This document shows, in pieces, positions 65 through 18,436 of a stretch of DNA of 20,674 nucleotides. Source of the DNA: a virus. The translations under genes and the position numbers were made by a program. The stretch's first letter is position 1. Each line of letters begins with the position of its first letter. Under the pieces are notes generated by a model that was not told the DNA's origin, ran no database searches, and worked only from the letters and a program-made list of their open reading frames with translations. The stretch spans positions 1-20,674 of IMG/VR virus record IMGVR_UViG_3300009705_004422; one strand, 5' to 3'.

Positions 65-78
65 GTGTATATATTAAT

Positions 79-1624: not shown

Positions 1625-1924
1625 TTAGTTTTTATTTTTTCTTGGTAACAGCTGAGAAACCCCCTCTACTATTGGAGGGGGTAAATTAGGATTCATTAGG
1701 TAGGGGTCGCGCCCTTTGGACAGCCAGTATTTTATTTCTTCTTGTGGGGCCATTTGACCGGTAGGACCCACATTCTCTAGATCCTTGTAGTAATCTACTT
1801 CAACGCTAAATAACGCAGGGATACCAACGCGCATTTTTTCGACGCGTCCGTGGTGTTGGGTCATCTGGCACCCAGCCAAAAATAATACTAAACATATTAA
1901 AATTTTATTTGCGTTGATTTTCAC
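1625..1924 (-). CDS. Small outer-membrane-type lipoprotein
   Basis: The 99-residue product has a lipoprotein signal peptide with lipobox LAGC (residues 16-19); Cys19 would be the lipidated residue. Residue +2 is Gln, not Asp, which favours outer-membrane sorting by the E. coli rule. The mature part is short and contains a LPPP stretch near the C-terminus, loosely reminiscent of Rz1-type outer spanins, but it is not clearly one. It starts at GTG 1924 with a strong AAAGGAG ribosome-binding site, and overlaps the MscS-like gene upstream by 20 bases, so the two are probably co-translated. It is the last gene of the minus-strand block. Confidence 0.75.
   Translation of the reverse strand: MKINANKILICLVLFLAGCQMTQHHGRVEKMRVGIPALFSVEVDYYKDLENVGPTGQMAPQEEIKYWLSKGRDPYLMNPNLPPPIVEGVSQLLPRKNKN
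1659..1682. repeat. Perfect 8-bp hairpin inside the lipoprotein gene end
   Basis: ACCCCCTC (1659-1666) pairs exactly with GAGGGGGT (1675-1682) around an 8-base loop. It encodes the proline-rich end of the lipoprotein. It lies about 40 bases past the stop of the convergent plus-strand gene, so it could slow or stop plus-strand readthrough. No T-run follows on either strand. Confidence 0.4.
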
Positions 1925-2387
1925 GAAGCTCCTTTAGGTCAGTTGCCGATACCTCCGCTAACTCTACAAAATCTGGATCCCCACCACTAGAGAGATAGGG
2001 GTTTCCTCCGTTTTTAGGAAGGGTTTTTTCTATTGTTAGTTCTTTTAACTGCTCATTGGGTACGACCATTTTAGTTTTGCGGTCAGTCATATAAAAAGTG
2101 GTAGATGTAACTCCAACCCGTACGATTCGTGCCTGACGCCCACTAATATAAATGATATCATCATTATTGAAGTGTGAACCATAAAATATTAAAATGCCTT
2201 TGGCGAAGTTCATCATAACGTCTTTTACTAAAATGACCGCTACTCCGGCGGCAAACATCCACCCATATTCTGAGAATAAGTCTTTTGCGATACCTTCTAC
2301 TTGCTCGTGATTAAAATTGGAAATAGTTGTGGAATCAAGGTTAGTTAAAACTTGACCAATTCCAATACTGTTAAGGAGGTTAGTCAC
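1905..2387 (-). CDS. Miniature MscS-like mechanosensitive channel protein
   Basis: The 160-residue product matches the core of the small-conductance mechanosensitive channel MscS. A membrane helix and pore-like segment (about residues 43-72, AAGVAVILV then NFAKGILIFYG) aligns with MscS TM3 (AAGLAVGLAL, NLAAGVLLVMF). It runs into a beta-domain at about 73-115, with DDIIYISGRQARIVRV and VTSTTFYMTDRKTKMVVPNE. The last part parallels the E. coli MscS stretch STTMRTADGKIIVIPNG. The first two helices of MscS and the large C-terminal alpha/beta domain are missing: E. coli MscS has 286 residues. It starts at GTG 2387, overlaps the preceding gene by 8 bases and the lipoprotein by 20. It may form a minimal pore or interfere with host channels; the activity is inferred only. 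Confidence 0.72.
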   Translation of the reverse strand: MTNLLNSIGIGQVLTNLDSTTISNFNHEQVEGIAKDLFSEYGWMFAAGVAVILVKDVMMNFAKGILIFYGSHFNNDDIIYISGRQARIVRVGVTSTTFYMTDRKTKMVVPNEQLKELTIEKTLPKNGGNPYLSSGGDPDFVELAEVSATDLKELRENQRK

Positions 2388-2644: not shown

Positions 2645-2650
2645 TTACAC
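2645..2650 (-). promoter_or_regulatory. GTGTAA start-proximal motif
   Basis: GAGTGTAA on the minus strand lies 10 bases before ATG 2640 and 16 bases before the second in-frame ATG at 2634. It sits in a 24-base gap between two genes. Confidence 0.4.
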
Positions 2651-2894: not shown

Positions 2895-2900
2895 ATACAC
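2895..2900 (-). promoter_or_regulatory. GTGTAT start-proximal motif
   Basis: CAGTGTATAGTAATAAAGAG on the minus strand precedes the ATG at 2880, with GTGTAT 20 bases upstream. It lies between the end of the pseudopilin genes and the small-membrane-protein cassette, as expected for a separate promoter. Confidence 0.4.
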
Positions 2901-3037: not shown

Positions 3038-4018
3038 TTACCATTGATGATTCCAGTACCATCCCCACGAGTCTCTTCTGCCGTAACGGACGTAAGAGTC
3101 TCGTGCCTCTTCTGGTCCCACATTCCATTTACGCATTTGTCTTGATAACCCATGAATCCAAGGAAACCATGTATATTTCTGAGCCGCAAAATCTTCTATT
3201 TTGGTGGTCGACCTATCTTTTAACCATTTTATATCTACATTACCATATGATCTCCTTATTCCGTACTTGAAATTAGAACCGTCAATGTAATATTTAACTT
3301 GTGCATTTTTTGTTCGCTCGTCCAACCATCTTTTAGTTTCGACATGACCATCTGCGAAAGCTAATGCCGTTCCATCAATGTGGTAGTTACCCGGAACATC
3401 CATGTCGTACACTTTATGCGTAGGCGCTCCTTCGTTCATCACTACCCTAAAACAACCAGCATTTATAAACTCAAACGGCATCTCTATAAAAGTAAAAATA
3501 TTAGATGGAACTTTGATGTCTTGTTGTTTACGGTATACTGTCCATTCTTTATCATCTTCTACTGGCCAACCCGCCCACCCTCCTACGTGAATATTAACGC
3601 TATAACTCCTATGTCGCGGGATGAGATATTTTAACTCACCAGCTTTGTTTGTTACTCGGAGCATGTCCTTGTCCGCTGGGCATTTAAATACACCAACAGA
3701 TTTGCCCGCATATGGATAAAGCGGGGATTTCTCTAGCCACATTGTTCGGTTTCCATATTTAGAAATATTTAAGCTACCGGCTGCCCATGCATACTTGGCA
3801 CATTTTTCATATTTCCAAGAACTTGAATATAATATTTTATCACCATGGTCATCACTAAACGTTGTGTGGGCCATTTGCAGCTGTTTCTGATTATTAATAC
3901 ATGCTACCCTTTGTGCGATTGATTTAGATTTAGCAATCGCTGGTAACATTAGCGTCGCAAGAATAGCGATGATTGCAATGACTACTAACAGTTCTATGAG
4001 TGTGAAGCCTTTTTTCAT
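3038..4018 (-). CDS. Type II secretion-like pseudopilin, H-X9-DG family (second copy)
   Basis: The 326-residue product has a textbook prepilin leader MKKG|FTLIE, with cleavage after Gly4 and Glu at +5 of the mature protein, followed by a hydrophobic helix ([20 protein letters not shown]). The C-terminal half carries the H-X9-DG signature: His213, nine residues, then Asp223-Gly224, in [20 protein letters not shown]. This domain marks a pseudopilin group abundant in Planctomycetota, Verrucomicrobiota and Lentisphaerota. I chose ATG 4018, not the upstream in-frame ATG at 4042, because it overlaps the previous stop as ATGA and gives the standard short leader. It is a paralog of its neighbour: both have FTFIEMP, INAG-x-FRV and a tryptophan-rich end (SWGWYWN). 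It would be matured by a host prepilin peptidase and inserted in the inner membrane. Confidence 0.9.
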
Positions 4019-4956
4019 TTCCAAGTTGGGTGATGGCCCCACGAATTATTCCAATACCAACCCCATGAAGTATACACGTTGCCGCCTACATTGCGCTCAT
4101 TCCCGGTTCTATTGTATCTACCTATACCACCGCCTCCCCCATACCATCCGTGAGTATTAGGATCTGGTACAACTGCTCTTTCTCTAAGCCACGAAAGATC
4201 ACGATTATTTGCGCTTACTATTTTATCCTGATTGGTTGTCGGGTCCATCGCGTCGGATGATATATTTATTGTGTCCTGTTCCAACCATCTTTTAAATTCT
4301 ACATGTGCGTCAACAAAAGAAACAACAGAACCATTATTATGATAAACTCCGGGCCAGTCTTGTGAGAAAAAACTCTCGCCACCTTTAAGCGCTGGTGCGA
4401 CTCTAAAATTTCCAGCGTTGATGGATTGAGGTGGCATTTCAATAAAAGTAAATAATAGGCTCGAGTTGTTTACGTCATCATATTCATGATGAACTTTGTA
4501 CTGGTTATCTGATAACCAAGGCCATCCCGACCAACCACCGACAAAGAGATTTACACTATAGGAACGCGGTCTGTTTATGGTCTTAGCGTTAACCGTAACC
4601 GTTGACTTGTCACCGGGACAATGGTATATACCCATACCCGCATAAGGTTTCAAAGGAGAAAAAAATAGAGGCCTATCGGTTTGCCCCCATGTCCCGCTGC
4701 CGCTCATACTGTCAGCAACCCACGCCCACATGCCGGTAGGCTCACCAGCCCAAGCTGAGGCGTAAGGAAACCTGTTTTCGTGATCCCCCGCAAACTGTGT
4801 GTAAGCGAGGTTAAGTTGACGTTGGTTATTTATACATGCTGCTTGCTGCCCCGTTTGTTTAGCTGAGCCAAGGGCCGGGAGAAGAAGGGCTGCCAAAATT
4901 GCAATGATGGCAATAACTACCAACAATTCAATAAGCGTGAAAGCTTTTGTTTTCAT
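4015..4956 (-). CDS. Type II secretion-like pseudopilin, H-X9-DG family (first copy)
   Basis: The 313-residue product has the prepilin leader [10 protein letters not shown] and the hydrophobic helix [20 protein letters not shown]. Ala replaces the usual Gly at the cleavage site, a substitution some prepilin peptidases accept. The H-X9-DG motif appears as His206, nine residues, then Asp216-Ala217 (DA instead of DG), within [20 protein letters not shown]. Shared blocks with the second copy include ACINNQ at the end of the helix, CP-x-DK, FTFIEMP, SINAG-x-FRV and SWGWYWN. A glycine-rich patch lies near residue 275. An AAAAAAGG sequence upstream of the ATG could serve as ribosome-binding site. 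No secretin, secretion ATPase or prepilin peptidase is in the window, so it would depend on host machinery. Confidence 0.9.
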
Positions 4957-6117: not shown

Positions 6118-6145
6118 ATATTAATGTGGAAAAACCTTTAGTCAA
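6118..6145 (-). promoter_or_regulatory. Possible sigma-70-like promoter for the glycosyltransferase
   Basis: On the minus strand TTGACT (6145-6140) and TAATAT (6123-6118) are 16 bases apart. The -10 box is only 8 bases from the ATG at 6109, so the transcript would be nearly leaderless. It overlaps the region holding the plus-strand signal for the phoH-like gene. Confidence 0.35.
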
Positions 6146-6158
6146 GTGTAATTATAAT
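6146..6158 (+). promoter_or_regulatory. GTGTAA motif plus TATAAT before the PhoH-like gene
   Basis: AAGTGTAATTATAATAAG precedes the ATG at 6167. GTGTAA is at 6146-6151 and a perfect TATAAT at 6153-6158. No TTGACA-like box lies 16-18 bases further upstream. The 57-base gap holds back-to-back promoters for two divergent blocks. Confidence 0.45.
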
Positions 6159-6903: not shown

Positions 6904-7269
6904 ATGGCTAGTATATTTTGTCCTGAATGCGGAGCTAAAGCAGCTTACACCTTAAATAAACCAAAGTTCTGTCAAACTTGTGGGGAGAAATTTGAGATGG
7001 GGTCCGTGGTGGCTTCTGAAGGCGATGATGAAGAAGGTCTTGAGGCCGTTCCGGAGCTTAGAAAATTAGATTATTCTATTGAAATGGAGCACGGTAAGAC
7101 TACGCTGGGCAATTTGTTTGATAGTCCTATGGCGCCAACAAATGAAAGCTCCGTCCCTACTTCGATTAAGGGTCACAAAGCACAAACAAAAAAACAGCTC
7201 CTTTCTCACTCTATAGCAGAATGCGCATCAAGGCAACAGCCGTCAGTAACTGAGGATGGATCAACGTAA
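6904..7269 (+). CDS. Zinc-ribbon protein, unknown function
   Basis: The 121-residue product has an N-terminal zinc ribbon with Cys6-x2-Cys9 (FCPECGAK) and Cys23-x2-Cys26 (FCQTCGEK). The rest has low complexity: an acidic run GDDEEGLEAVPE and a serine/lysine-rich tail, probably disordered. It follows the PhoH-like gene by 2 bases and overlaps the sigma-like gene by 14. Such small zinc-ribbon proteins are frequent near phage transcription genes. A role in binding nucleic acid or polymerase is possible but unproven. Confidence 0.75.
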   Translation: MASIFCPECGAKAAYTLNKPKFCQTCGEKFEMGSVVASEGDDEEGLEAVPELRKLDYSIEMEHGKTTLGNLFDSPMAPTNESSVPTSIKGHKAQTKKQLLSHSIAECASRQQPSVTEDGST

Positions 7270-7966
7270 AAAGTACGAAGATAAAGCAGATGTAATAGAT
7301 AACGAGATACGCAAAAGATACTACAAGTGGCATTTACATGCTATTGCGTGGTTTGATTTTGATGATGTCGCTCAAATTATTCGCGCTCATATTTTTAAAA
7401 AATGGGACCAATGGGACCAGATAAGGGCCCTTGAGCCATGGGTGAATAAAATCATTTCCAATCAATTGAAAAATATTTTGCGGAACAACTATTCTAACTT
7501 CGCACGACCGTGCCTTAACTGCAAGCACAACCAGTCTAAACAGCAAGGGGATAACCAAGTTTCCGCCTTATGTTCGCTGACTCCTAGTGGGTTGCAGTCT
7601 AACGAATGTGACCTTTTCGCTAAATGGGAAAAGACTAAAAAAAATGCATACGATATTAAAATGCCTCTTTCTTTAGAGTTTCACTCTTATACCCAAAATA
7701 CAGAACCCTCAGATCACCTCGACATTAGCCGAGCTACCTCAACCCTTCATCGTAAAATGATGGAAAAGCTAACTCCGAGACATTATTTTGTATATAAGAT
7801 GTTGTTTATAGATGGTATAAGCGAAGACGAGGTTGCACGAATTTTAGGATACAAAAGCAACGAAAAGGGAAGAAAAGCAGGGTACAAACAAATTAAAAAT
7901 TTAAAAAACCAATATAAGAATATGGCTAAAAAGATTATAGATAAGGAGGATATTTTTTATGAGTAA
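7256..7966 (+). CDS. Phage RNA polymerase sigma-like factor with four-Cys insert
   Basis: The 236-residue product resembles phage-encoded sigma factors. Residues about 30-80 read like a sigma region 2: FDFDDVAQIIRAHIFKKW, then EPWVNKIISNQLKNILRNNY. Residues about 170-222 form a region-4-like helix-turn-helix, with LTPRHYFVYKMLFIDGISED and EVARILGYKSNEKG. Between them lies a cysteine cluster, Cys86, Cys89, Cys106 and Cys118 (RPCLNCKHN, CSLT, CDLF), probably binding zinc. It would direct polymerase to phage promoters, perhaps those marked by the GTGTAW motif; that link is inference. It overlaps both neighbours, by 14 and 8 bases, within a tightly packed operon. It could instead be a sigma-like DNA-binding protein without sigma activity. 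Confidence 0.72.
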   Translation: MDQRKKYEDKADVIDNEIRKRYYKWHLHAIAWFDFDDVAQIIRAHIFKKWDQWDQIRALEPWVNKIISNQLKNILRNNYSNFARPCLNCKHNQSKQQGDNQVSALCSLTPSGLQSNECDLFAKWEKTKKNAYDIKMPLSLEFHSYTQNTEPSDHLDISRATSTLHRKMMEKLTPRHYFVYKMLFIDGISEDEVARILGYKSNEKGRKAGYKQIKNLKNQYKNMAKKIIDKEDIFYE

Positions 7967-9029
7967 TTACGTCCTTACAAAACAAGAAAAGGTGACTGCC
8001 ATTGAGTTGTTTAAGGAATTAGATGGGGATTTGAGCGAAGCTTGTGTGAAGTTATTTGATGACCCCAATGAAAAAGGAAGCACGATTCGTGGAAGAGCGT
8101 TAAGAAAATTTTGGGTAGAAAAAGGGTTTGAGTATCGAACGAAGGTCAAGAAGAAAACCAGCAAGTATTTTTTGCAAGACAGTGAAAAGGATTTCGTACA
8201 TCGCAATTATTGCGCAGAGATGACTAAGAGGGAAGTGGCCCAATTGTTGTGGACACAGGAAACAAACCATAGAGGTTTTTACGAAAGTCCTAGGTTTATT
8301 GCTTTGTCTAATTTTATTAACAAGGAGTTTCCAAAGATTACTAATTTGCGAGATGAAATAACGGGCGATCGATATGCGCCGCCACAAATAATGAGCACGG
8401 TGATTAAAAAAGTTAACCGTATGGTTTTTAAAGAATTTGATGTAGAAAAGATAAACATACAGGATAGAAAATGCTTAGAAAGACTCTTAACCTATTTATC
8501 AGCCCCTCGTTTTCTACAGGTAATTAACGCGTATACTACTAAACAGAATCGAGAACTGTTGGAATCAGAATATGTTAGGTCTACGTGGGACAAGCCAGAT
8601 TTAACAGCAGATGAACTTAATTTGTACATTAACGTATGTATGGATTATGTTAATCTAAAAGAAATCGAGCAGCAAAAACAAAAGCTTAATTTAATGTTTG
8701 ATGATACTGAAGGACAGAACGATTTAACTATGCGCTTGACAGAGATGCTGAAAACTAAATCAGAAGAATACAACCAATGCACAAATCGTATTGATAAAAT
8801 GATAGCTAAGCTGAACGGTGAGCGAGCAAAGAGGGTGGCTAACCAACACGAGCGCAACGCTTCGGTATTAGCATTGGTGCATCTTTTTCAAGACGAGGAA
8901 GAGAGGCGGCTAATGATTAAAATGGCAGATATGCAAAAAGAAACCGTTAAAGAAGAGGCTGATAAAATAGAAGGAATGAATGATTGGAAAGCTCGAGTTT
9001 TAGGTATAAGTAGGCAAGAAATTATATGA
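7959..9029 (+). CDS. Putative terminase small subunit
   Basis: The 356-residue product has a helix-turn-helix-like N-terminus (about residues 8-55, LSEACVKLFDDPNEKGSTIR) and a central helical part with LERLLTYLSAPRFLQVINAY and WDKPDLTADELNLYINVCMD. A long charged coiled coil fills about residues 225-340. I associate this sequence style with the gene two before the large terminase in marine tailed phages. Position just before packaging genes supports a DNA-recognition role, but no definite small-terminase motif is visible and it is longer than most (150-200 residues). It has a strong GGAGG ribosome-binding site and overlaps the sigma-like gene by 8 bases and the nuclease gene by 4. Confidence 0.5.
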   Translation: MSNYVLTKQEKVTAIELFKELDGDLSEACVKLFDDPNEKGSTIRGRALRKFWVEKGFEYRTKVKKKTSKYFLQDSEKDFVHRNYCAEMTKREVAQLLWTQETNHRGFYESPRFIALSNFINKEFPKITNLRDEITGDRYAPPQIMSTVIKKVNRMVFKEFDVEKINIQDRKCLERLLTYLSAPRFLQVINAYTTKQNRELLESEYVRSTWDKPDLTADELNLYINVCMDYVNLKEIEQQKQKLNLMFDDTEGQNDLTMRLTEMLKTKSEEYNQCTNRIDKMIAKLNGERAKRVANQHERNASVLALVHLFQDEEERRLMIKMADMQKETVKEEADKIEGMNDWKARVLGISRQEII

Positions 9030-9988
9030 TGGAGAGGATAGTTAAAAAAATGTTCAGGTGCGTAGAATGTAAAAAAGAGTTCGAGGGGAGGGGCTCGCTG
9101 CATAAACATTTAAAGCAGCACGGACTATCTTTAGCGGAGTATTATACGCTCCATTATCCGCGAAAGAATAAGCTGACTGGAGAACCATTGCCGTTTAAAA
9201 AATTTGAAGAGTACTTTGAAAGAGATTTTTCCACAAAGCAGCAGCTTAAAAAATGGTGCGCAAAAGCTCCTCCTTCCGAGGTAGGGGCATATATTTTATC
9301 ATTAATCGAAAAAAGACAGTTGAAAAAGCAGAGGATCTATGCTCCTTTTCACTTGGAGGCCAAAAGCTGTTTCTTACCAGACATAGACACTTATAGAAAA
9401 ATATTTGGCAGCTATAATGAGGCTGTCAAAAAGGTTGGCTTACGACCTTTGTATGCAGAGAGGTTACCTAAGGATTTTTTTAATTTTGAGTTGCCTGAAG
9501 ATATAAGGATTGCGATAGATACTCGCGAACAATCCCCTCTTAGCTTTCCTTTTCAGGCTGATGATCACAAGCTAGATGTGGGGGATTACACTCTTTTTGG
9601 TAACCACTATTCTTATACTTACGTAGATCGTAAGTCAGGATCTGATCTGCACTCCACTCTGAGTAACCAAAACTATGAGCGTTTTCAAAGGGAGTTGCAA
9701 AGAGCTAAAGAATTAGATTCTTATCTATTTGTAGTTATAGAGTCAACGCCGGAAAAAATGATCAAGGCAAGTAGGGCTTTTAAGAGGGCGGCAGGCATTG
9801 ATTTCATTTTAAAGAGGGTTAGGGATTTAAGTTATGAGTTTCAGGGGCACTGTCAGTTTTTATTTAGCGGGAGCCGGAAAATCTCAGAGGAAATCATTCC
9901 TAGGCTACTTTACAAGGGCAAAGAAGTGTGGAATACGGATATGCAATATTTTTTAGATCATGAGCTGGATAGAAGGAACACAGAATAG
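9026..9988 (+). CDS. C2H2 zinc finger fused to ERCC4/XPF-type nuclease
   Basis: The 320-residue product starts with a classical C2H2 finger, Cys12-x2-Cys15-x12-His28-x3-His32 (FRCVECKKEF, LHKHLKQH), followed by a conserved-looking linker HGLSLAEYYTLHYPRKNK. The C-terminal half (about 160-245) is an ERCC4 nuclease domain. It has Asp165 and Glu168 in IAIDTREQSP, Asp187 in LDVGDYTL, and the signature DRK-x3-D (residues 201-207, VDRKSGSDL). These are the metal-binding acidic residues of structure-specific nucleases. It probably cuts branched or junction DNA before packaging. The start could be 9026 (coupled to the previous stop) or ATG 9050 behind GGAGAGG (9031-9037); both keep the zinc finger. 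It overlaps the terminase gene by 29 bases. Confidence 0.82.
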   Translation: MMERIVKKMFRCVECKKEFEGRGSLHKHLKQHGLSLAEYYTLHYPRKNKLTGEPLPFKKFEEYFERDFSTKQQLKKWCAKAPPSEVGAYILSLIEKRQLKKQRIYAPFHLEAKSCFLPDIDTYRKIFGSYNEAVKKVGLRPLYAERLPKDFFNFELPEDIRIAIDTREQSPLSFPFQADDHKLDVGDYTLFGNHYSYTYVDRKSGSDLHSTLSNQNYERFQRELQRAKELDSYLFVVIESTPEKMIKASRAFKRAAGIDFILKRVRDLSYEFQGHCQFLFSGSRKISEEIIPRLLYKGKEVWNTDMQYFLDHELDRRNTE

Positions 9989-11825
9989 ACCACCTCCAAG
10001 GTGTCGCTCGAACAAAGAGCTGAATAAGATCGAAGGTCACATAGAAGAAAGGGAGGCTAAGATCGCCCTATATGAGTTCTTAAGGAATAATATGACTTTT
10101 ACGGCAGAGCTTATGATGGGGATTAAGCTTTTTCCTTTTCAGCATATGGCCGTTAAGAGCATGTTCGAAACAGATTATTTTTTAGGAGTATGGTCTCGAG
10201 GGATGTCCAAGTCATTCACGACAGGTGTTTTTGCTGCTTTAGATGCTATTTTAAACCAAGGAGTAGAAATCGGCATACTTTCCAAGTCTTTCAGGCAGGC
10301 AAAAATGATCTTCAAGAAAATTGAGGATATTTCTATGCATCCCGACGCAGGCCTATTTAAACAATGTATCACTAAGGTTTCTAAGAGTAACGACGAATGG
10401 TTAATGGAGATTGGCACTAGTCGTATTCGAGCGCTGCCACTAGGAGATGGCGAAAAGTTGCGTGGCTTTAGGTTTCATCGTATTATTATTGATGAGTTTT
10501 TATTGATGCCCGAAAGGATTTATAACGAAGTTATCGTTCCCTTTTTATCTGTTGTTACAAATCCTACCCAACGTGACGATCTATATAAACTAGAAAATAA
10601 GCTGATCAAGGAAGGACAAATGGAAGAAAAGCAAAGACATATTTGGCCTAACAATAAGTTGATAGCTTTATCGTCAGCTTCTTATAAGTTTGAATATCTT
10701 TATAAGTTATACCAACAGTTCGAGCTAAGCATTACAAGAAAAGAGCAAAAAGACAAGGCTTCTAGGTGTATTATGCATTTTTCTTATGACTGCGCCCCCA
10801 CACAGCTTTACGATCAAAATCTACTTAATCAAGCCAAAACCACCATGAGCACATCTCAGTTCGAGCGAGAGTTTGGGGCGGTTTTTACCGATGATAGTGC
10901 GGGCTATTTTAAGACAAGTAAAATGGCGCTATGTACGGTTCCAGACGGAGAGTCTCCATCTGTTGAAATTAAAGGGGACGCGGATGCAGAGTATATTTTA
11001 GCCTTTGATCCGTCGTGGTCACAAACTGAGAGCTCAGATGACTTTGCAATTCAAATTCTAAAATTAAACGAAGAACAGCAGAGGGCAACACTGGTGCATA
11101 GTTATGCTTTGGCGGGAACTTCTTTGAAACACCATATTAGATATTTTCTTTATTGCTTGCAAAATTTTAATATTACTGCTGTATGTGGGGATTATAATGG
11201 AGGGGTGCAATTTTTGCAAGCGTGTAATGAAAGCGAGATGTTTAAACAAAAAAAAATAAAACTAAGACAGATTGAAGTTCCTTTCGATAAGCCAGAGGAG
11301 TATCAAGCTAATTTGACTACTTTTAAAAATGAATATAATAAAGGCGACTACAAACACGTAATATTGCGAAAACCCACAAGCGGTTGGATACGTCAGGCTA
11401 ACGAGCTATTACAAGCTAATTTTGATCATCGTCGCGTTATGTTTGCTAGTCAGGCCATTAATGAACAGTATGTAGCTCAGAAAAATAAAAGCATCCCAAT
11501 TGAAGAGATTATGTTTTTGCGCAGCAAAGACGTAGAGAAGCAAAGTTCGGGAGCAAAGCAGATTTATTTTATTGAACACCAGTCGGACATGATGAGCCTA
11601 ACAAAAAATGAATGCGCTTTAATACAGATAACTTCCACCGCTCAAGGAACTCAGACTTTTGATTTGCCGTCTAACCTTCGTAGGCAAACTGGGCCCGACA
11701 AGGCAAGAAAAGACTCTTACTCCGCTTTGCTACTTGCCAATTGGATGACAAAAATCTATTTTGACTCGAAAAAACAACCCAAATCGAATATAATAGAAAC
11801 GTTCGAACCAATGTTCGTAAACTAA
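9960..11825 (+). CDS. terL: Terminase large subunit
   Basis: The 621-residue product is the packaging motor. The ATPase part has Walker A SRGMSKS (residues 79-85), Walker B IIIDE (175-179) and a coupling motif ALSSASYK (236-243). The RNase H-like nuclease part has the three expected acidic positions: Asp350 (ILAFDPSW), Asp411 (CGDYNGG) and Asp585 (RKDSYSALLLANW). Length is near the 600-residue norm for T4-like terminases. Walker A lacks the usual GK pair, with Ser before Lys. The annotated start overlaps the nuclease gene by 29 bases; its first 20 residues look poorly conserved, so translation might begin later. A hairpin follows its stop. Confidence 0.93.
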   Translation: MSWIEGTQNRPPPRCRSNKELNKIEGHIEEREAKIALYEFLRNNMTFTAELMMGIKLFPFQHMAVKSMFETDYFLGVWSRGMSKSFTTGVFAALDAILNQGVEIGILSKSFRQAKMIFKKIEDISMHPDAGLFKQCITKVSKSNDEWLMEIGTSRIRALPLGDGEKLRGFRFHRIIIDEFLLMPERIYNEVIVPFLSVVTNPTQRDDLYKLENKLIKEGQMEEKQRHIWPNNKLIALSSASYKFEYLYKLYQQFELSITRKEQKDKASRCIMHFSYDCAPTQLYDQNLLNQAKTTMSTSQFEREFGAVFTDDSAGYFKTSKMALCTVPDGESPSVEIKGDADAEYILAFDPSWSQTESSDDFAIQILKLNEEQQRATLVHSYALAGTSLKHHIRYFLYCLQNFNITAVCGDYNGGVQFLQACNESEMFKQKKIKLRQIEVPFDKPEEYQANLTTFKNEYNKGDYKHVILRKPTSGWIRQANELLQANFDHRRVMFASQAINEQYVAQKNKSIPIEEIMFLRSKDVEKQSSGAKQIYFIEHQSDMMSLTKNECALIQITSTAQGTQTFDLPSNLRRQTGPDKARKDSYSALLLANWMTKIYFDSKKQPKSNIIETFEPMFVN

Positions 11826-11861: not shown

Positions 11862-11867
11862 GTGTAA
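11862..11867 (+). promoter_or_regulatory. GTGTAA motif before the portal gene
   Basis: CGGTGTAAAATCTAAC immediately precedes the portal ATG; GTGTAA is 14 bases upstream. No purine-rich ribosome-binding site separates it from the start codon. Confidence 0.45.
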
Positions 11868-13901: not shown

Positions 13902-13907
13902 GTGTAA
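13902..13907 (+). promoter_or_regulatory. GTGTAA motif before the protease/scaffold gene
   Basis: AAAGTGTAACTTAAGCAGT fills most of the 20-base gap after the portal stop; GTGTAA is 16 bases before the ATG at 13918. Confidence 0.45.
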
Positions 13908-17873: not shown

Positions 17874-17879
17874 GTGTAA
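17874..17879 (+). promoter_or_regulatory. GTGTAA motif before the putative connector gene
   Basis: TAAGTGTAAATTACTTTACT abuts the stop of the SAP gene (TAA 17871-17873); GTGTAA is 17 bases before ATG 17891. The 17-base gap holds nothing else and no ribosome-binding site. Confidence 0.45.
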
Positions 17880-17890
17880 ATTACTTTACT

Positions 17891-18436
17891 ATGGCTTGGG
17901 ATTCAGATAAGAAGCAAACACCTTATTTCGTTAGCACTGTTGCTACAGGTATCTATCGGGACGAGTTTGATAGCGATACGGGGTATCAATCCCTATCTCA
18001 GATCTCTGGGTGGCTGGAGAATAATGTAGGACTACTCAACACTCAGCTCTATACTTCTTTCTCAGGATCTGGAACCACTGATGGGGATACAGCCCTTCAG
18101 GGCACAGGGGCCTTTAGATACGAAGAGGCGGATATCTTTAAACAGCTTTATCTTGTAGAGTACTACAAAAAGAAGACACGCTCTGTTTTGAAGGGCATAG
18201 ATAGCTCTGTAGATTTCATTACCTTGAGGGATGGAGATTCTTCGATTACGCGTACAAATAAAAATGAGATAGCCAAGACCTACAGGGGGCTCACTAAGGA
18301 CGCTCAGGAGCGCCTAGACGGCCTTACGGCCAAATACAACATATATGCCGCTGTTCCCCTGCAAGTAGCAGGAGCGGACGCTACGCCCCTTTCAGGGGAA
18401 GCTAACTATCCTGTGTATAACGCTTTCAGGGGATAA
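17891..18436 (+). CDS. Putative head-tail connector or virion structural protein
   Basis: The 181-residue product has no signal peptide, membrane segment or enzyme motif. It starts MAWDSDKKQTPYFVSTVATG. It contains LSQISGWLENNVGLLNTQLY, then a helical part with ADIFKQLYLVEYYKKKTRSV. Size and place after the capsid region fit a connector/neck (head completion) protein. I recognise the style from marine myovirus-like genomes but cannot name the family. It is the last plus-strand gene, closed by a bidirectional terminator 26 bases downstream. Confidence 0.55.
   Translation: MAWDSDKKQTPYFVSTVATGIYRDEFDSDTGYQSLSQISGWLENNVGLLNTQLYTSFSGSGTTDGDTALQGTGAFRYEEADIFKQLYLVEYYKKKTRSVLKGIDSSVDFITLRDGDSSITRTNKNEIAKTYRGLTKDAQERLDGLTAKYNIYAAVPLQVAGADATPLSGEANYPVYNAFRG

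What the first reader, a model, noticed from the sequence alone, without database searches (positions are those of the whole stretch)
7256..7966. Sigma-like factor with a four-cysteine insert between regions 2 and 4
Seen: region-2-like and region-4-like segments separated by Cys86, Cys89, Cys106 and Cys118. A zinc-binding module in this place is unusual for sigma factors. Since the genome has a repeated upstream motif without a normal -35 box, this protein is the natural candidate reader.
Basis: partly seen in the sequence, partly recalled or inferred. Interest (0 to 1): 0.52.

Follow-up and report, generated by a model that had tools for sequence, protein, structure and literature searches.

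The report
Phage sigma factor with metal-binding linker
An uncultivated marine phage group carries a gene-switching (sigma) protein with a four-cysteine, probably metal-binding, piece between its two DNA-binding halves, and the same phages carry a short conserved promoter that this protein may read.

Summary
The ORF at 7256-7966 is a real sigma-family protein with region 2 and region 4. Its only four cysteines (86, 89, 106, 118) lie between them. They are invariant in 58 of 58 distinct relatives and in 67 of 67 aligned members down to about 40% identity. One more distant member has a rearranged C/H set. Metal binding is inferred. The GTGTAW motif is also real: it lies at a fixed distance upstream of orthologous portal (113 of 115), prohead (88 of 97) and PhoH (80 of 101) genes, with no -35 box and almost no Shine-Dalgarno. 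Wherever the group's terminase was held with enough upstream DNA, the factor was present: 42 of 42, and 9 of 9. Three unrelated phages without the factor lack the motif. But the factor's own operon starts with GTGTAW (59 of 66), while a second, different sigma-like gene sits in early-type units (0 of 63 with GTGTAW). A new variant of phage ECF-like sigma factors (phiEco32 gp36 kind).

The parts
7256..7966 (+). sigma-like factor with four-Cys module, 236 aa (stop included)
7349..7489 (+). sigma region 2 (residues 32-78)
   Evidence: PF04542 E 1.6e-4; found in 46 of 46 members at E<=1; helices 35-48 and 59-82
7508..7609 (+). four-Cys module PCxxC-x16-C-x11-C (residues 85-118), probable metal site in the region 2/4 linker
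   Evidence: 58 of 58 and 67 of 67 invariant; spacing 2 / 6-18 / 11 over 64 distinct module sequences
7724..7945 (+). sigma region 4-like helices (residues 157-230)
   Evidence: PF08281 E 0.043; 13 of 46 members at E<=1; VIA-align matches to sigma region 4 chains, e.g. 3vfz rmsd 2.2 over 62
6146..6151 (+). GTGTAA, head of the PhoH - zinc ribbon - sigma - small terminase - ERCC4 - large terminase unit
   Evidence: 80 of 101 PhoH orthologues have it
11862..11867 (+). GTGTAA 14 nt before the portal gene
   Evidence: 113 of 115 portal orthologues
13902..13907 (+). GTGTAA 16 nt before the prohead gene
   Evidence: 88 of 97 orthologues
17874..17879 (+). GTGTAA 17 nt before the 181-aa gene at 17891
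65..70 (+). GTGTAT 14 nt before the gene at 79
2895..2900 (-). GTGTAT 20 nt before the gene at 2880 (minus)
2645..2650 (-). GTGTAA before the gene at 2640 (minus); 10 nt from the first ATG, 16 nt from the second in-frame ATG
6904..7269 (+). small zinc-ribbon protein (CPEC...CQTC), syntenic, overlaps the sigma start by 14 nt
   Evidence: synteny
7959..9029 (+). gene in the small-terminase position directly after sigma (no family match; the name rests on position)
9960..11825 (+). large terminase subunit
   Evidence: PF03237 E 5.4e-7; phrog_2 E 7.4e-26

Best explanation
The gene encodes a phage sigma factor of the small ECF-like kind: region 2, an unusually long linker that carries a structured metal (probably zinc) site, and region 4. 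It binds the host RNA polymerase core and lets region 2 read a single-element promoter, (T)AGTGTAWW, with no -35 box. By analogy with phiEco32 gp36, whose start sites lie 6-8 bp below its element, transcription would start about 0-8 nt before the ATG, so head and packaging genes get leaderless or nearly leaderless mRNAs. Its own gene lies in a unit headed by the same promoter, so it would amplify itself, kick-started by read-through or by the early second sigma. The metal site would stiffen and fill the path through the polymerase cleft where ordinary ECF linkers run extended. Shown here: sigma homology, invariant cysteines, promoter-like motif at orthologous genes, unit layout, co-occurrence. 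Inferred: metal, RNA polymerase binding, reading of the motif, feedback, leaderless start.
For: Sigma homology; fold matches nearly all sigma factors. Cysteines invariant. Best PHROG is phrog_1740 in 44 of 46 members at E<=1, which also holds phiEco32 gp36 at 1.9e-45; gp36 reads the single element tAATGTAtA (PMC8948821 passages). Motif: top word in 4 of 4 clades (in one clade just below its overlap AGTGTA); portal 113/115, prohead 88/97, PhoH 80/101, unit-internal terL 0/136, MCP 0/77, sigma 0/135; no -35; heads units; 4 of 355 with SD core against 198 of 1578. Co-occurrence 42 of 42 and 9 of 9; absent in control phages. Own unit headed by GTGTAW in 59 of 66; phage 7-11 is reported to have such feedback (PMC8948821 section 19). 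No third promoter word was found for it to read instead.
Against: Region 4 is well conserved although the motif has no -35; in phiEco32 gp36 the lack of -35 is ascribed to a missing region 4. Direct profile comparison of the family with gp36 is not significant, L135's member does not reach phrog_1740 at E<=0.01, and a weight-matrix test of motif similarity to TAATGTATA was not significant (22% of permutations as good). No structure of the module, no metal, no RNA data.
Confidence: 0.55

Rival explanations
1. The second, early-type sigma-like protein (phrog_351 kind) is the reader of GTGTAW. The four-Cys protein, made from that promoter together with packaging genes, acts later or otherwise: it retunes the polymerase, competes with other sigmas, or serves a special late task.
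For: Second gene in both longest records; 0 of 63 of its evaluable units carry GTGTAW and 26 of 63 carry CTTGAC-N16-19-TANNNT (0.65% in shuffled 250-bp windows), whereas the four-Cys gene is headed by GTGTAW in 59 of 66. GTGTAW is also the top word around it.
Against: Its PHROG and NCBIfam matches are RpoD/FliA-like, not the gp36 family. No separate promoter class was found for the four-Cys factor. A late sigma inside its own regulon has precedent.
Confidence: 0.28
2. Both factors read the same or overlapping promoters: the second sigma opens them at low level and the four-Cys factor takes over. (This overlaps the best explanation, so the confidences do not add to one.)
For: Unit layout; GTGTAW also precedes units with replication genes such as DnaB (a small gene 44-46 nt before DnaB in both long records has it), so the class may be middle plus late.
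Against: The two families show no significant profile similarity, so shared specificity would be convergent.
Confidence: 0.3
3. The motif is read by the unmodified host polymerase and a host sigma; the phage factor is unrelated to it.
For: Early-type CTTGACA promoters show that host-like recognition is used too.
Against: Motif absent from 200 kb of one MAG that holds a member (2 of 166 ORFs), though that contig may be misbinned; motif constant in phages binned with different phyla (L134, L135).
Confidence: 0.08
4. GTGTAW is a translation signal, not a promoter.
For: Close, nearly fixed distance to the ATG and lack of Shine-Dalgarno.
Against: It heads transcription units (11 of 31 divergent, 3 of 31 with same-strand upstream gap <=12 nt, against 29 of 65 and 114 of 215) and is missing from unit-internal terL, MCP and sigma genes.
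Confidence: 0.05
5. The cysteines hold an iron-sulphur cluster or a redox switch rather than zinc.
For: Four invariant cysteines alone cannot tell the metal.
Against: One distant member (L330) replaces the set by Cys and His residues, which suits zinc better.
Confidence: 0.15

Closest known systems
phiEco32 gp36 (phrog_1740, phage ECF sigma factor)
   Same: Same best PHROG; phage sigma serving middle and late genes; single-element promoter without -35, tAATGTAtA against TAGTGTAWA here; sigma gene in the non-early part of the genome.
   Different: gp36 has no cysteine at all and is reported to lack a region 4; profile comparison with the family not significant; no leaderless pattern seen at its gene-40 upstream element, which lies about 70 nt before the ATG.
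Phage 7-11 late sigma SaPh711_gp47
   Same: Late sigma inside the late cluster with proposed positive feedback; region 2 plus region 4 (PMC8948821 section 19).
   Different: Bipartite promoter GTAAtg-(16)-aCTA, no four-Cys module mentioned in the passages seen.
T4 gp55 with gp33
   Same: Phage factor for late genes at promoters with a -10 element only (PMC2988020 passages and section 9).
   Different: gp55 has region 2 only and works with gp33 and the sliding clamp. Here regions 2 and 4 are one chain. The two long records have a Pol III alpha type polymerase; profile comparison with S-PM2 gp55 not significant.
ECF sigma factors with linker cysteines (CorE/ECF238, ECF57)
   Same: Cysteines in the region 2/4 linker or linking the two domains (PMC8999054 passages).
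   Different: CorE has CXC plus a C-terminal Cys-rich domain; here a complete CxxC...C-x11-C set sits in the linker and no Cys follows it.

Membership tests
sigma70 family, ECF-like architecture | region 2 present | tested here: met
   46 of 46 members match PF04542 at E<=1, best 5.6e-6; 14 of 20 records over the family cut-off (one of the 20 is a bacterial MAG whose own sigmas also count)
sigma70 family, ECF-like architecture | region 4 present | tested here: met
   weak by sequence: 13 of 46 members match PF08281 at E<=1; supported by predicted helices and structure matches at rmsd 2.2-3.0 over 62-72 residues
sigma70 family, ECF-like architecture | curated family score reached | tested here: inconclusive
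   TIGR02937 37.7 bits against cut-off 42.9, E 1.5e-9; PF04542 21.8 against 24
sigma70 family, ECF-like architecture | binds RNA polymerase core and directs promoter-specific starts | not testable with these tools
   needs protein
phiEco32 gp36 family (phrog_1740) | profile match along most of the protein | tested here: met
   window member E 1.4e-6, residues 5-233; 44 of 46 at E<=1; weaker for L079 (0.0052), and L135 not listed at E<=0.01
phiEco32 gp36 family (phrog_1740) | direct similarity to gp36 | tested here: inconclusive
   hhalign of A4 against the single gp36 sequence not significant
phiEco32 gp36 family (phrog_1740) | single-element promoter in the same phage | tested here: met
   GTGTAW without -35; that this protein reads it is not shown
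T4 gp55 late sigma | gp55 profile (phrog_234, the PHROG of S-PM2 gp55) | tested here: not met
   S-PM2 gp55 hits phrog_234 at 4e-67; P0001 does not list it at E<=1
T4 gp55 late sigma | region 2 only, region 4 supplied by gp33 | tested here: not met
   region 4-like segment in the same chain
CorE-like ECF sigma | CXC in the linker and C-terminal Cys-rich domain | tested here: not met
   CxxC and two more Cys in the linker, none after residue 118
zinc protein | bound zinc | not testable with these tools
   four invariant Cys only; no Pfam match of the module, 6 members tried

The most novel reading that the evidence does not exclude
A sigma factor whose linker between regions 2 and 4 is not an extended peptide but a folded metal module that occupies the polymerase cleft and RNA exit path, working like the zinc ribbon and reader of TFB/TFIIB. 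It would be one half of a two-sigma cascade with positive feedback in a large uncultivated phage lineage whose non-early genes are transcribed from one single-element promoter as leaderless mRNAs.
Probability: 0.2. Interest if true: 0.8.

Novelty: new variant of a known kind. Interest (0 to 1): 0.56.

Why it matters
Sigma linkers pass through the active-site cleft and the RNA exit channel and control the first steps of RNA synthesis. In the ECF structures they are extended, while in archaea and eukaryotes a zinc ribbon and reader do this work (PMC6372665 passages). A sigma with a conserved metal site at that spot would be a natural test of how much structure the path tolerates. The short promoter and the leaderless pattern make gene-class prediction possible for these phages from sequence alone. 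The T4 review asked why no fused late sigma (gp55 plus gp33) is known (PMC2988020 section 9); a one-chain region 2 plus region 4 factor at -10-only promoters bears on that question.

Tried and rejected
Sequence search of solved structures gave nothing useful: best E 2 with the protein, 1.1 with the profile. Single-protein tblastn against cultivated phages found no member: one weak hit, E 0.3, in a Gordonia phage for P0001 and none for two divergent members; none in plasmids.

A T4-like reading was considered first because of the terminase, PhoH and rII genes. It was dropped when the replicative polymerase in both long records proved to be a Pol III alpha type and the comparison with S-PM2 gp55 failed.

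A C-terminal clamp-binding peptide (conserved D-I-F/I/L end) was considered from memory of T4 gp55. It was not tested and not claimed.

A third promoter class for the factor was looked for and not found, only early-type and terminator-like words. Motif similarity to the phiEco32 element was tested and was not significant; the matrix was built from sites chosen for GTGTAW, which biases that test against a difference at the G. The 2015 prediction TGATGT for phage 7-11 was set aside because the later experiments give a different promoter. A second fold model with 67 sequences did not make the module clearer: pLDDT 76.9 against 75.7, segment 136-151 below 50.

The first unit-head count used a short gap limit and was replaced, which has the same direction. 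Rows dropped: 86 of 152 sigma loci (80 without a divergent gene in the contig, 6 not in the ORF set) and 6 of 69 second-sigma loci. ORF calling was mechanical, so start codons are approximate. The replication genes scanned had been picked as ORFs without the motif, so they are no test of a late-only class; GTGTAW does precede some replication units.

Paper searches listed no description of this factor or of a GTGTAA phage promoter. This covers only that library and those terms. Papers: PMC7824862, PMC2988020, PMC8999054, PMC6372665 and PMC8948821 were seen as passages (PMC2988020 section 9 and PMC8948821 section 19 in full); PMC4331800 as abstract, outline and sections 12, 14, 15.

Full report
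What is there. The ORF at 7256-7966 (+) codes for 236 aa and lies in a fixed gene order: PhoH, small zinc-ribbon protein, this gene, a gene in the small-terminase position, ERCC4-type nuclease, large terminase, portal, prohead protein, MCP candidate (the last three names rest on order and weak matches). The window is an IMG/VR virus record of 20,674 bases.

It is a sigma-family protein. PF04542 region 2 at residues 32-78 (E 1.6e-4) and PF08281 region 4 at 167-198 (E 0.043); TIGR02937 sigma70-ECF over 30-201 at E 1.5e-9, a little under its cut-off; phrog_1740 'RNA polymerase sigma factor' over 5-233 at E 1.4e-6. Of 46 aligned members, 46 match region 2, 13 region 4 and 44 phrog_1740 at E<=1. 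The predicted model (pLDDT 75.7) has region 2 and region 4 helices with high confidence and a poor middle. Structure searches return almost only sigma factors, with modest E-values (best 0.012 in PDB, 0.0057 in BFVD; best 0.0014 for the second model). Domain-wise matches are good: 2.8 A over 77 residues for region 2 and 2.2 A over 62 for region 4.

The cysteine module. Cys86, 89, 106 and 118 are the only cysteines. They are invariant in 58 of 58 distinct sequences from the first scan (81 sequences before removing copies) and in 67 of 67 of a broader alignment down to about 40% identity. In the terminase-based scan 46 of the 50 rows printed show all four, and the other four are cut off by contig ends. 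Spacing is C-x2-C-x(6-18)-C-x11-C over 64 distinct module sequences. Of eight further full-length members fetched, seven keep the set (in L334 read by eye, because its loop is longer than the pattern allowed); one, L330, has PCPDQHLSDHDPLTCPIC instead, i.e. Cys and His residues that could still make a four-ligand site. Six module stretches had no Pfam match. Zinc is therefore a good inference, not a result.

The promoter-like motif. By count alone GTGTAW is not striking in the window. By position it is. Over 136 loci (1378 ORFs with 60 bp upstream) it occurs upstream in the sense direction for 261 ORFs and antisense for 74. In four clade groups, ranking all hexamers at -22 to -13 from ATG puts GTGTAA first in three, and second to its overlap AGTGTA in the window's own (observed 35, 76, 47, 115; expected 0.7, 1.6, 1.0, 2.6). 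In whole long records 26 of 247 (G001) and 18 of 240 (G002) ORFs have it at 14-26 nt; permuted words give 0 to 10 apart from the overlapping AGTGT (19 and 11). Orthologous genes keep it: portal 113 of 115, prohead 88 of 97, PhoH 80 of 101; unit-internal terL 0 of 136, MCP 0 of 77, sigma 0 of 135. There is no conserved -35 (153 non-redundant sites). ORFs with the motif have a Shine-Dalgarno core in 4 of 355 cases, others in 198 of 1578. Motif genes stand at the head of units. Unrelated controls: T4 0 of 54, S-PM2 1 of 54, HTVC008M 1 of 47, a MAG 2 of 166; positives G001 19 of 231 and G002 13 of 205 by the same count.

Factor and motif together. From a terminase scan (80 loci kept of 594), all 42 loci with more than 3.6 kb upstream of the terminase carry the factor; the other 38 have too little upstream DNA (54 of 80 carry it in all). 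Of 32 records found through the second sigma, 9 hold the factor and 10 hold the terminase; 9 of those 10 have both, and in the tenth the terminase is cut by the contig end. As no near-complete record was available, absence elsewhere means little.

The second sigma and the order of events. The two longest records (211 kb, 180 kb) each hold a second sigma-like gene (208 and 194 aa), close to the first only in name: its matches are phrog_351 and RpoD/FliA-like models. Genes without GTGTAW at unit heads are enriched for CTTGAC, followed at about 17 nt by TAnnnT, i.e. a sigma70-like early class. In 66 evaluable loci the four-Cys gene's unit has GTGTAW in 59 and the early pattern in 2; in 63 evaluable loci the second sigma's unit has GTGTAW in 0 and the early pattern in 26. 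So the second sigma looks early and the four-Cys factor looks non-early. This is against a simple 'this protein switches the class on' reading. It fits a feedback loop: phage 7-11 has its late sigma inside the late cluster, presumably first fed by read-through and then by its own promoter (PMC8948821 section 19).

Why I still favour the factor as a reader. The PHROG it matches best holds phiEco32 gp36 (E 1.9e-45), a phage sigma shown by others to read a single element, tAATGTAtA, with starts 6-8 bp below it. The consensus here around the motif is T-A-GTGTA-A/T-A. The likeness is visible but did not pass a permutation test (22%), and direct profile comparison with gp36 is not significant. gp36 has no cysteines. 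No other promoter class was found that the factor could serve.

How it probably works. Region 2 on the polymerase would melt and read the GTGTAW element; region 4 would hold the flap without needing a -35 contact; the long linker with its metal site would sit on the path through the active-site cleft and RNA exit channel where ECF linkers run (PMC6372665 passages). The motif's distance to the ATG (peaks at 14-15 and 18-19 nt) then gives leaders of roughly 0-8 nt. These last steps are inference.

Verdict. Observation confirmed; interpretation partly supported; a new variant of phage ECF-like sigma factors, with an unusual conserved four-Cys linker module and a well-supported group-wide promoter motif, whose pairing remains to be tested.

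Noticed in passing
G001:C1:133960-134586 (+), G002:C1:89736-90320 (-); L236-L315: A second phage sigma-like family (phrog_351-like), in early-type units, 248 relatives found in viral contigs.
   Followed up: partly
G001 and G002 (L136-L155): Early-type promoters CTTGACA-17-TAnnnT, often with the -35 starting 36 nt before the ATG, which also suggests leaderless starts.
   Followed up: partly
L330 (G038:C1): A divergent member with a rearranged Cys/His set in place of the four-Cys module.
   Followed up: partly
window 3038-4042 and 4015-4956 (-): Two overlapping prepilin-like genes with weak matches to Verru_Chthon and H-X9-DG pilin models, hinting at a Verrucomicrobiota or Lentisphaerota type host.
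   Followed up: partly
window 1905-2387 (-): Short protein with a weak MscS mechanosensitive channel match.
   Followed up: no
window 9026-9988 (+): ERCC4-type nuclease with an N-terminal C2H2-like finger between the terminase genes, syntenic in the group.
   Followed up: no
window about 6118-6151: In the window's clade the GTGTAA before PhoH overlaps a divergent CTTGAC early-type -35 on the minus strand (AGTCAAGTGTAA).
   Followed up: no
G001:C1:165447-168017; G002:C1:134582-137155: Both long records encode a Pol III alpha type polymerase; G001 also has rIIA/rIIB, UvsX-like, DnaB-like and RNR genes.
   Followed up: partly
G001:C1:185387-205156 (-): An open reading frame of 6589 residues.
   Followed up: no
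L133, L134, L135: Members lie in contigs binned with bacterial MAGs (uncultured bacterium, Halobacteriovorax, Flavobacteriaceae); the last MAG holds two terminase copies.
   Followed up: partly
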